DNA from: Chelydra serpentina
Lineage: Eukaryota; Chordata; Testudines; Chelydridae
Assembly: GCA_037349315.1 (NCBI GenBank)
Contig: JBAIAC010000279.1
Location: 287,001-351,000 of the forward strand
Direction of reading: 5' to 3'
DNA: 64,000 nucleotides
Position numbers and translations under genes: made by a program. Shown piece after piece: positions 35,144-64,000 of the stretch. The number at the start of each line of letters is the position of its first letter. The first letter of the stretch is position 1. Under the pieces are notes generated by a model that was not told the DNA's origin, ran no database searches, and worked only from the letters and a program-made list of their open reading frames with translations.

Positions 35144-38100
35144 ATGGTGGAGCTGGAGAAGGAGGTGCTGCCCCTGCCCCCGCGCTACCGCTTCCGGGAC
35201 CTGCTGCTGGGAGACTGGCAGGCCGAGGAGAGGTGAGGGCAGCCCCGGGCAGGGCGGGCGCTGGGCCCCCAGGAGGGGCTGGGCCCCAGGCAGGGCGGGC
35301 GCTGGGCCCCCAGGAGGGGCTGGGCCCCGGGCAGGGCGGGCGCTGGGCCCCGGGCAGGGCGGGCGCTGGGCCCCCAGGAGGGGCTGGGCCCTGGGCAGGG
35401 CGGGCGCTGGGCCCCCAGGAGGGGCTGGGCACTGGGCCCCCGGAGGGGCTGGGCACTGGGCCCCTGGGGTGGCTGGGCGGTGGGCCCCAGGCAGGGCGGG
35501 CGCTGGGCCCCCAGGAGGGGCTGGGCCCCGGGCAGGGCGGGCGCTGGGCCCCTGGGGTGGCTGGGCAAGGGGGGCGGGGGGTGGACGGGAGCGACCCTGG
35601 AGATGCTGGTCCCAGCGCCACCTTTGCCAGCCCCACCTCTGGGACGAGCTGGGCCCTGCCGGCGTCGGGCTCTCTGGGGCGTGGCCCCTCTGCTGCCCGC
35701 TGCAGCCTCCCTGGGACGGCCACCCCCCTGCCCGAAGCACCTTGCCCCGGGAGCCGGGCTCGGGATGCCGGCTGGGCAGCCCCTCATCTTCCCCTCCCCC
35801 CCATTCCCCATTTGAGGCCAAGTCGGGGGGGGGGGGTCTGGGGGCTCAGTCCCCCTCCCCCGATCAGTGCCACCACCCCGAGAGCCTCCCCCATGCTCCC
35901 TACCCCTGCTGGTGCCCGCGTCTCCTGCCCCTTCTTGGCCCCCTGGCGTGAGGGATGGGGACAAATGGGGAGGTGCTGCCTCAGGGCACGGAGAGGGAAG
36001 GGACCGGCAGCAGGGTCTGGTGATTTGGGGCAGGACTCCGGGATTCTGCTCCCAGCTCTGGGAGGGGAGTGGGATCTAGTGGCTAGAGCAGCAGGCGCTG
36101 GGAGCCAGGACTCCTGGGTTCTCCCCCCAGCTCTGGGCGGAGGTGTAGGCTCCGGATCAGAGCCAGCGGCGCTGTCCCTGAGGAAGGCCACGTTGAGTGG
36201 TTCTGGGCGGCGACAGGGGACCCCGGCTGGCTTTCGGGGTCTCCCCGTAGCGCCCTGTGGTGTGGCCTGGCGCCCCGGGGTTCTTTGTGGCTCTGGCAGC
36301 GGCTGCGTGGGATCTCCCGGGGGGCGGCCTGGCTACCCCCAAGCACAGCGGGCGCCTCTGTGGCTCTGGGTGGCGCTGCTGAGCGTGGGGGCCGGTCCCG
36401 CACTGTGTGGAGCTGGGCGGTTTCCCTGTGGCATGGCAGGGGGCGGGGTGGGTTTGCAGGGCACCGCGTGGGGCACTGTGTGTGGGGCTCTGTCTGGTGC
36501 CCCCGGGGGTCTCCCTGGCGCTGACTGGCATGGGGCTGCAATGTCCCCCTGGGCACTGGGGGCTTCCCCCATAGCGTGGCTCCATGCGGCACGTCCAGTG
36601 CTGCCCCAGGCTGCCCCAGTGAGAGCCCCCGTGCCGCAGCCTGTGGGGGCAGGGACTCCAGGCAATGGCAGGGTGTCCCACCCTCCGCCCTGCCCAAGGG
36701 ATCCCCCAGGGGGATGCTCTGTCTCCATGGCTCATGCAGTCCCCAGCCTCTCTGGGGAGCCAGCCAGCCAGTCCCCGCTGGGGTCAGATGGGAGCCGGCG
36801 CCCCCTTGAGGGGAAAGGTCCCATGTCCCATTCCCCACCCCCCTGGGCCAGCCAGTCCCCGCTGCTCTGAGGCTGGATGGTGAGGGGCCGAGCTGGGTGG
36901 GGCAGAGCTGGGATAGTGGGGGGCACAGGACAGGAGTGAGGGGCACCGGCAGAGCTGGGGGAAGCCCAGGCCTGAGATGGGGGGGCTCCACGTCAGGCTT
37001 GAGGGGCACCAGTAAAGCTGGGGGGTGGGGGGAGCCCGGGGCTGGTCAGGAATGAGGGGCACTAGCAGAGCTTGGGTTGGGGGAGCCCAGCATGGGGCTG
37101 GTCTGGGTCTGTTCTTCCAGTGACCCGAGTCGTGGGGCTGTTGGGGTCTAGCAGCTCCCAAGGGGTTAACGAAGCTGCGAGCCCAGCCCCGGGGGGGGGG
37201 GGGGGTGTTTTCAGAGCCTCCCTGGAGCCTATTTTCCTCCCCCCATCCCCCAATCCACCCACACCCCTCCTGCTCCTAGCCTGCTTCCTGCAACTGTCAC
37301 CGGCTGCTGCCTGACTCCAACGCCTGCTAATTGGAGGGGGGGGGGGGATATGGGGGTAGCTTCCATGCACCCTGGGCTGTTGCAGGGAGATGGGTGGGTG
37401 GGGGGTGGAGATGGGAAGGAGAAGGAGCGGGGCTGGGATACCGTCTTCATCCTCAACTCCTTTTCCCCCTGTCGCCCCTGCTTCTCCCCCTTGGGTGGAG
37501 GCCTCCCGGAGCCAGATTCCGGCAGCCTGAGCGGGTGACCGGGGCTGTCGGCTGATGCCCGCGAGGGGAACCTGCCGGGGCTTTAAGTGCCAGGTTGGAT
37601 CTGGCCCAGCGGGAAATTGCAGCTGGAGGAGGTCTGCTGTGGTTAATTGGGTGTATCCCGCTATGGTGCGCACAGACCACAACTCAGCTCCGGGGGGCCC
37701 CCGTCGCCCCGGGCGCTGCAGCGACCCAGAGCCCGTCCCACCCCCAGAGGGGTCATCAAGGATCATTCTCACCCTCTTACGAAGGGAGAGCCGAGGGCCC
37801 AGACAGACAGACAGGTTTGGAGGGGAAACCGAGGCACAGAGCAGGCAAGTCACTTGGGGGCAGAGCTGGGAATAGAACCCAGGAGTCCTGCATCCCCGGG
37901 CCATGCCCTCCTCGCAAGCCCGTGCCCCCCCCCCCCGAATGGGACTTCGCCTCCTCCTGAATGTTGCATACAGAGCGTCTCGGCGGAAGGTGCCTTTGTG
38001 GTGTCTGTTCTCTGATGGACGGGCAGCCCCGAGGTGGTTGCTCTTCGCAAGGCCCACTCCCCCTCCCCGCCTCGGTGTGCCCCCCTTCACCCAAGCCCGG

Positions 38101-64000: not shown

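What the first reader, a model, noticed from the sequence alone, without database searches (positions are those of the whole stretch)
35144..64000. A third vertebrate Slo2 (KCNT) channel gene next to DNM2
Seen: a complete-looking channel frame in 19 phase-matched exons. Compared with the human proteins as I remember them, some blocks are KCNT2-like ([23 protein letters not shown], the GFG filter, PIQFEQLA) and others KCNT1-like (CWGCP.QN loop, [23 protein letters not shown]). Known: human DNM1 and KCNT1 are both on 9q, DNM3 and KCNT2 both on 1q, and DNM2 is on 19p13.2 with no KCNT neighbour that I know of. Inference: this is the DNM2-linked member of the quartet made by the two vertebrate genome duplications, kept in turtles and lost in mammals. 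If so it adds a Na+-activated K+ channel to the family.
Basis: partly seen in the sequence, partly recalled or inferred. Interest (0 to 1): 0.87.

Follow-up and report, generated by a model that had tools for sequence, protein, structure and literature searches.

The report
Third vertebrate Slo2 potassium channel gene
Beside its two known sodium-activated potassium channel genes, this reptile-like genome carries a third intact one next to dynamin-2, very probably a survivor of the early vertebrate genome duplications; reviews of these channels count only two genes.

Summary
The finding holds up. The 19 exons are there. The gene continues 12.2 kb past the window and ends in a full channel: 29 coding exons, or 30 with one doubtful exon, giving 1156 or 1175 aa, with GT-AG at every intron and only the terminal stop. 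The same genome has KCNT1 (contig C22; 97.6% identical to chicken KCNT1) and KCNT2 (contig C24). The window protein is 77.6% identical to that KCNT1 and 79.0% to that KCNT2, which are 83.4% identical to each other. In trees without an outgroup it falls outside both clades. Each of the three KCNT contigs carries one of the genome's three best dynamin matches. The gene next to the new KCNT has its closest relatives near KCNT2. This fits a 2R ohnolog ("KCNT3"). The RCK2 sodium-switch residues are kept, except that D839 is E, a change tolerated in human KCNT1. It is probably a Na+-activated K+ channel; this is inferred. Not tested: other vertebrates, loss in mammals, expression, gene databases. 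Ten literature searches listed no third KCNT gene. New member of a known kind.

The parts
35144..35232 (+). KCNT3 exon 1 (ATG; N-terminus of the Slack-A/Slick type, type name recalled)
   Evidence: KCNT1 and KCNT2 of the same genome have matching exons
44275..44354 (+). KCNT3 exon 2
44871..44973 (+). KCNT3 exon 3 (S1)
45354..45407 (+). KCNT3 exon 4 (S1-S2 loop, CWGCPRQN, KCNT1-like)
   Evidence: aligned to human KCNT1; KCNT1 counterpart found on C22
45491..45539 (+). KCNT3 exon 5 ([15 protein letters not shown]2-like)
   Evidence: counterparts in KCNT2 and KCNT1
46492..46551 (+). KCNT3 exon 6 (S2)
47848..47922 (+). KCNT3 exon 7 (S3)
48378..48461 (+). KCNT3 exon 8 (S4)
49960..50054 (+). KCNT3 exon 9 (S4-S5 linker, S5; alternative acceptor at 49957 adds one Gln)
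50622..50802 (+). KCNT3 exon 10 (pore loop TVGFGD, S6)
53974..54138 (+). KCNT3 exon 11 (start of RCK1)
58054..58190 (+). KCNT3 exon 12 (RCK1)
58527..58590 (+). KCNT3 exon 13 (RCK1)
   Evidence: aligned to human and chicken KCNT1; counterpart not in the paralogue DNA fetched
59702..59810 (+). KCNT3 exon 14 (RCK1)
61493..61601 (+). KCNT3 exon 15 (RCK1, BK_channel_a domain)
62123..62179 (+). doubtful exon 16 (57 nt, in frame; cassette exon or false exon)
   Evidence: AG/GT and open, but no counterpart found in KCNT1/KCNT2
62510..62659 (+). KCNT3 exon 17 (RCK1)
63089..63324 (+). KCNT3 exon 18 (end of RCK1)
63958..64000 (+). KCNT3 exon 19, cut by the window end (continues to 64180 = C278:351180)
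   Evidence: exons 20-30 at C278:351769-363218
24549..30591 (+). QTRT1 (span between the first and last ORFs recognised; exons not joined)
   Evidence: Pfam TGT in the N-terminal ORF; both ORFs printed; gene name and C-terminal ORF recognised from recall
11348..11509 (-). first coding exon of the adjacent dynamin (DNM2 by recalled traits), which runs left out of the window to at least C278:247366
   Evidence: tblastn with a recalled dynamin-1; PDB dynamins; Dynamin_M

Best explanation
The window holds the first 70% of the span (55% of the codons) of an intact third Slo2 gene ("KCNT3"), the DNM2-linked ohnolog of KCNT1 and KCNT2 left by the two early vertebrate genome duplications. It most likely encodes a tetrameric K+ channel of the Slo2 plan: S1-S6, a TVGFGD filter, and an RCK1-RCK2 gating ring. 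Cytosolic Na+ would open it through the RCK2 switch described for human KCNT1. Shown: the gene, its intact frame, its distinctness and its linkage. Inferred: expression, channel activity, Na+ gating, and the date of the duplication.
For: Full coding frame over C278:322144-363218, GT-AG at all introns, one terminal stop. Domains Slo-like_RCK (2 stretches), BK_channel_a and Ion_trans_2, all above the Pfam cut-offs. Separate KCNT1 (C22) and KCNT2 (C24) loci in the same genome: the 40 matches listed for the N-terminal query all fall on C278, C24 or C22, as do the 36 for the C-terminal query. Identities T3-T1 0.776, T3-T2 0.790, T1-T2 0.834, against KCNT1 own-human 0.918 and own-chicken 0.976. FastTree without outgroup: the three KCNT1 split from {KCNT2, KCNT3}, and human KCNT2 (recalled) joins own KCNT2 without KCNT3, both with support 1.000. 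The exon plan of both paralogues matches: 25 of 30 exons recovered in each, 20 of those 25 the same length (equal phase was imposed by the search), plus KCNT1 exons 4 and 5. The three best Dynamin_M matches lie on C24, C22 and C278, the three KCNT contigs. The neighbour B3GALT2-like gene has 4 of its 5 best matches other than itself on C24 within about 2 Mb of KCNT2, three of them just downstream of KCNT2. Purifying selection: KCNT3 and KCNT2 differ at 5.5% of second codon positions but at 68% of 250 comparable fourfold sites. Sodium-switch residues (human numbering) V882, V883, D884, K885, E886, E920 and T922 are identical; D839 is E, and the D839E mutant of human KCNT1 gave currents qualitatively like wild type (passages of PMC11309980; columns).
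Against: No invertebrate Slo2, lamprey or fish sequence was available, so the tree cannot place the duplication at 2R. With Slo1 as outgroup (336 columns) the root is unresolved (support 0.042 and 0.073), and in the seven-sequence tree even the KCNT2 pair falls to 0.487, while KCNT1 stays at 0.999. The KCNT3 branch is about twice that of KCNT2 (0.21 against 0.10), so distance alone does not date it. Against KCNT1 the second-position difference is higher (10.6% of 782 codons, fourfold 59%), in part because exons of equal length with internal shifts were compared without gaps. Human H844 (rat H823, reported to affect Na+ sensitivity; PMC3850776 passage) is T in KCNT3; it is N in own KCNT1 and M in recalled human KCNT2. 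No transcript evidence. No second genome was seen to carry the gene.
Confidence: 0.88

Rival explanations
1. It is KCNT1 or KCNT2 itself, seen in an odd place.
For: The best PDB hits are KCNT1; no KCNT2 chain is in that list.
Against: KCNT1 and KCNT2 are found on other contigs with their own sets of exon matches. Own KCNT1 is 97.6% to chicken KCNT1, KCNT3 only 75.1%.
Confidence: 0.01
2. A later single-gene or segmental duplicate of KCNT2 (after 2R but before the amniote ancestor) that evolved fast.
For: KCNT3 is slightly nearer KCNT2 (0.790 against 0.776) and shares TVGFGD with it; the neighbour B3GALT2-like gene points to the KCNT2 region; the KCNT3 branch is long.
Against: The linked dynamin would have to be copied along with it, and the C278 dynamin sits with QTRT1 and ILF3, the human 19p13.2 DNM2 block (map recalled). 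KCNT3 also shares 33 states with KCNT1 against KCNT2. Human and own KCNT2 exclude it in the tree without outgroup (human KCNT2 recalled).
Confidence: 0.07
3. A decaying pseudogene.
For: Faster branch than its paralogues, minisatellite-swollen introns (11 merged arrays covering 6353 of 28857 bases), one doubtful exon.
Against: No internal stop in the joined frame, all splice sites intact, conserved filter and RCK switch, PDZ-like ending STHL, low second-position change against KCNT2.
Confidence: 0.03
4. A contaminating scaffold from another animal.
For: Small scaffold (606 kb) with high GC (coding 63%, GC3 92%).
Against: Without this scaffold the genome would lack one of its three best dynamin matches, although the weaker dynamin-like matches on C8, C460 and C600 were not typed. 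Shared repeats or read linkage were not tested.
Confidence: 0.01

Closest known systems
KCNT2 (Slick, Slo2.1, KNa1.2)
   Same: 79.0% identity over 1050 aligned residues in the same genome; TVGFGD filter; 90 of 99 residues in S5-pore-S6; PDZ-like C-terminus (KCNT2's ETQL recalled)
   Different: Separate locus (C24); KCNT3 has the KCNT1-like CWGCP.QN loop, 33 KCNT1-like diagnostic residues, E in place of D839, and a tail only 63% alike
KCNT1 (Slack, Slo2.2, KNa1.1)
   Same: 77.6% identity to the KCNT1 of the same genome and 75.2% to human KCNT1 8hir; same exon plan; RCK2 switch VVDKE, E920 and T922 identical
   Different: GFG instead of GYG filter, E at D839, T at H844, separate locus and separate clade
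KCNMA1 (Slo1, BK)
   Same: Slo plan with two RCK domains; 98 bits to BK chains
   Different: About 30% identity over 358 residues, so not a member

Membership tests
Slo2 / KCNT channels | Closest sequence relatives are KCNT1/KCNT2 over the full length, not Slo1/Slo3 | tested here: met
   1141 and 1092 bits to KCNT1 chains against 98 to BK; C-terminal half 839 and 819 bits to KCNT1
Slo2 / KCNT channels | K+ selectivity filter plus S1-S6 and paired RCK domains | tested here: met
   TVGFGD; Ion_trans_2, two Slo-like_RCK stretches and BK_channel_a above cut-off
Slo2 / KCNT channels | Gene structure shared with KCNT1/KCNT2 | tested here: met
   25 of 30 exons recovered in each paralogue, 20 of those 25 of equal length; equal phase was a condition of the search, so only lengths and open AG/GT segments are independent evidence
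Slo2 / KCNT channels | Residues of the RCK2 sodium switch | tested here: met
   D884, K885, E920 and T922 identical; D839 is E, reported wild-type-like in human KCNT1; H844 is not kept
Slo2 / KCNT channels | Opens with intracellular Na+ (and Cl-) | not testable with these tools
   needs electrophysiology
2R ohnolog quartet (DNM-KCNT paralogon) | Each copy linked to a dynamin gene | tested here: met
Distances are 7 Mb (C22), 17 Mb (C24) and 24 kb (C278); the C22 and C24 dynamins were not typed as DNM1 or DNM3
2R ohnolog quartet (DNM-KCNT paralogon) | A further linked gene family repeats the pattern | tested here: met
   Met for KCNT3 and KCNT2 only: B3GALT2-like gene C278:379030-380121, best other matches on C24; no clear counterpart beside KCNT1 (30% match at C22:13.79 Mb)
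2R ohnolog quartet (DNM-KCNT paralogon) | Duplication dates before the gnathostome radiation in a rooted tree | tested here: inconclusive
   no invertebrate or fish Slo2 on hand; Slo1 root unresolved
2R ohnolog quartet (DNM-KCNT paralogon) | DNM2-linked KCNT in other vertebrates | not testable with these tools
   only this vertebrate genome is held; the protein database was switched off

The most novel reading that the evidence does not exclude
Jawed vertebrates began with a third Na+-activated K+ channel, KCNT3, that still works in turtles and probably in other non-mammals. It may mix with KCNT1/KCNT2 subunits, and it was lost in the mammalian line between ILF3 and QTRT1. It has been overlooked because it sits in GC-rich, minisatellite-filled sequence.
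Probability: 0.6. Interest if true: 0.75.

Novelty: new member of a known kind. Interest (0 to 1): 0.66.

Why it matters
Reviews of 2013 and 2024 count two genes for Na+-activated K+ channels, Slack and Slick (passages of PMC3850776, and PMC11206332). KCNT1 is a childhood-epilepsy gene (abstracts listed). A third natural paralogue, about 78% identical to both, gives a contrast already tested by evolution for Na+ sensing (D839 to E, H844 to T), for the filter (GFG) and for subunit assembly. It also makes the family history (a DNM-KCNT quartet, three kept) directly testable. It warns that KCNT comparisons between mammals and reptiles may assume the wrong gene set.

Tried and rejected
Reading it as KCNT1 or KCNT2: rejected, since both exist elsewhere in the genome. 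Exon 16 as a standard exon: not accepted. The KCNT1 intron between exons 15 and 17 was fetched whole (L003) and shows nothing like it; the KCNT2 intron was fetched only in part, so a cassette exon remains possible. Rooting with Slo1: unresolved. PDB comparison to name the adjacent dynamin: not decisive, because no chain in the list is named dynamin-2 (DNM1 887, DNM3 875 bits); the name DNM2 rests on recalled sequence traits and on the QTRT1/ILF3 neighbours. Naming the animal by beta-globin: no species; two alpha-type globin loci were fetched and their ORFs listed but not used. A channel catfish "KCNT1-like" gene (PMC7432863, passages) was looked at as a possible fish copy; the passages give no sequence or linkage. 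'kcnt1a', 'kcnt1b' and 'kcnt1l' proved to be footnote marks or Kcnt1 L/L in the three papers opened (passages); four of the six papers and the one were not opened. Structure prediction was not run: at 75-79% identity to a solved or sister channel it would add little.

Full report
The thing itself. The window lies at C278:287001-351000 of a 2.28 Gb assembly of 806 contigs. I fetched C278:350001-410000 and found the rest of the gene by tblastn with a recalled human KCNT1 C-terminus, then by reading the splice sites. The whole coding part spans C278:322144-363218: 30 candidate exons, 1175 codons plus stop, GT-AG throughout. Exon 16 (window 62123-62179) is doubtful. Without it the protein is 1156 aa and the join reads without a gap against KCNT1 and KCNT2. 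Coding GC is 63% and GC3 92%, against GC3 of 66% for the KCNT1 and 40% for the KCNT2 exons recovered from the same genome.

What it is related to. Against PDB chains the N-terminal part gives human KCNT1 8hir 1141 bits and chicken 5u70 1092 bits, with the best BK channel at 98 bits; the C-terminal half gives 839 bits to 5u70 and 819 to 8hir. Pfam finds two Slo-like RCK stretches, BK_channel_a and Ion_trans_2 above the cut-offs.

Three KCNT genes in one genome. The N-terminal query lists 40 matches, all on C278, C24 or C22; the C-terminal query lists 36, on the same three contigs. C22 is KCNT1: the part recovered is 97.6% identical to chicken and 91.8% to human KCNT1. C24 is KCNT2: 93.3% to human KCNT2 as I recall it. 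In each, 25 of 30 exons were recovered, 20 of those 25 with the same length as in the window gene. My script demanded equal phase and some shared words, so phase agreement is partly by construction. Not recovered: exons 4, 5, 13, 16 and 30 (KCNT1) and 4, 13, 16, 22 and 30 (KCNT2). A later tblastn finds KCNT1 exons 4 and 5 in the DNA on hand (L057), so the script had missed them. It finds no clear KCNT2 exon 4, and no exon 13 or 30 of either gene or KCNT2 exon 22 in what was fetched. The script also cut KCNT1 exon 21 short; that intron seems to be GC-AG, and the residue matching D839 is D there.

Distances and trees. Identity is 0.776 (1050 residues) to own KCNT1, 0.790 (1050) to own KCNT2, and 0.834 (1026) between those two. 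FastTree with five sequences (995 columns), and with recalled human KCNT2 added (993 columns), keeps the three KCNT1 apart from {KCNT2, KCNT3} at 1.000; in the second tree the two KCNT2 join without KCNT3 at 1.000. Adding a Slo1 stretch (336 columns) leaves the root unresolved (0.042; 0.073 with seven sequences); the KCNT1 clade then has 0.956 and 0.999, but the KCNT2 pair only 0.487. An earlier iqtree run timed out. So the protein is neither KCNT1 nor KCNT2. That it split from KCNT2 before the human-reptile split rests on the recalled human KCNT2. The date at 2R rests on linkage rather than on the tree.

Linkage. Of 33 Dynamin_M matches the three best are at C24:60.06 Mb, C22:6.34 Mb and C278:271 kb, on the three KCNT contigs; the other contigs with matches are C4, C8, C460 and C600. 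Which of the C22 and C24 loci is DNM1 or DNM3 was not typed by sequence, and C8, C460 and C600 were not named. On C278 the order is dynamin (-), QTRT1 (+), KCNT3 (+), a B3GALT2-like gene (+) and ILF3 (-) (QTRT1 and ILF3 named from recalled sequence, QTRT1 also by its TGT domain). The first dynamin exon and the KCNT3 start are 23.6 kb apart. The B3GALT2-like gene (PF19341 above cut-off) matches best at C24:44.50 Mb and at ORFs at C24:42.63, 42.66 and 42.69 Mb, just downstream of KCNT2; these are 4 of the 5 best of its 21 matches other than itself, the fifth being on C29. Human ILF3-QTRT1-DNM2 on 19p13.2, KCNT1 with DNM1 on 9q, and KCNT2 with DNM3 and B3GALT2 on 1q are recalled map facts. Together this is the pattern of a paralogon with three surviving dynamin-KCNT pairs.

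Is it a live gene? There is no internal stop, all splice sites are kept, and the end (DSTHL) resembles a class I PDZ ligand. Against KCNT2, 731 codons compared exon by exon differ at 5.5% of second positions, while 68% of 250 comparable fourfold sites differ; against KCNT1 the figures are 10.6% of 782 and 59% of 263, inflated by ungapped comparison of shifted exons. The pore and RCK domains are 81-91% alike to the own paralogues; the RCK linker (46-51%) and tail (62-63%) are less so. That is what a constrained channel looks like. The KCNT3 branch is about twice that of KCNT2. No expression data exist here.

How it probably works. Four subunits form a K+ pore with a GFG filter, which KCNT2 shares. 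Human KCNT1 work (passages of PMC11309980) puts the Na+ switch in RCK2: D884/K885 in the 882-VVDKE-886 loop, E920/T922 at the beta-O strand, and D839. In KCNT3 all are identical except D839, which is E; D839E in human KCNT1 gave currents qualitatively like wild type. H844 (rat H823, whose mutation lowers Na+ sensitivity per PMC3850776, passages) is T, but it is N in own KCNT1 and M in recalled human KCNT2. Na+ activation is therefore the best guess; its strength may differ.

Novelty. Ten searches of the held library listed no paper on a third vertebrate KCNT/Slo2 gene; one of them was about the Na+ site. KCNT3 as a word occurs in 0 papers. Reviews of 2013 and 2024 say that two genes are known (PMC3850776; PMC11206332; passages only). 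The library lacks most subscription papers, and gene databases could not be queried, so an automatic annotation such as KCNT1-like may exist. It is a new member of a known kind.

Limits. One genome only. Loss in mammals is not tested.

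Noticed in passing
window 35242-61461, introns of the gene: Introns are stuffed with minisatellites: 11 merged arrays cover 6353 of 28857 bases (22%), for example a 29-bp unit at 48671-49896 and a 57-bp unit with about 26 copies at 59965-61461. This may be why such genes drop out of short-read assemblies.
   Followed up: partly
window 54121-54403: A 63-64 bp array (about 4.5 copies) beginning at the end of exon 11 repeats the last bases of that exon together with its GTGAGG splice donor.
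   Followed up: no
C24:42607126-42686395 (own genome): Downstream of KCNT2 exon 29 there are three B3GALT-like ORFs interleaved with extra matches to KCNT exons 26/27 at 42642111, 42665302 and 42667538: apparent tandem partial KCNT2-B3GALT duplications.
   Followed up: no
C278:379030-380121 (own genome): Intact single-exon B3GALT2-like gene between KCNT3 and ILF3, 42-44% identical to its five best relatives; it may itself be an unlisted ohnolog of B3GALT2.
   Followed up: partly
L062 (C22, KCNT1 exon 21): KCNT1 of this genome seems to use a GC donor after exon 21 (AACAA|GCAAGT).
   Followed up: no
C460:37114-39070 and C600:24432-26381 (own genome): Two small contigs carry dynamin-like matches with nearly equal scores and spacing, distinct from the three KCNT-linked dynamins; perhaps haplotypes of one gene.
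   Followed up: no
window 15906-16799 and 17255-17927, - strand: Remains of a LINE reverse transcriptase (CR1-like, named from recall) between the dynamin and QTRT1 genes.
   Followed up: no
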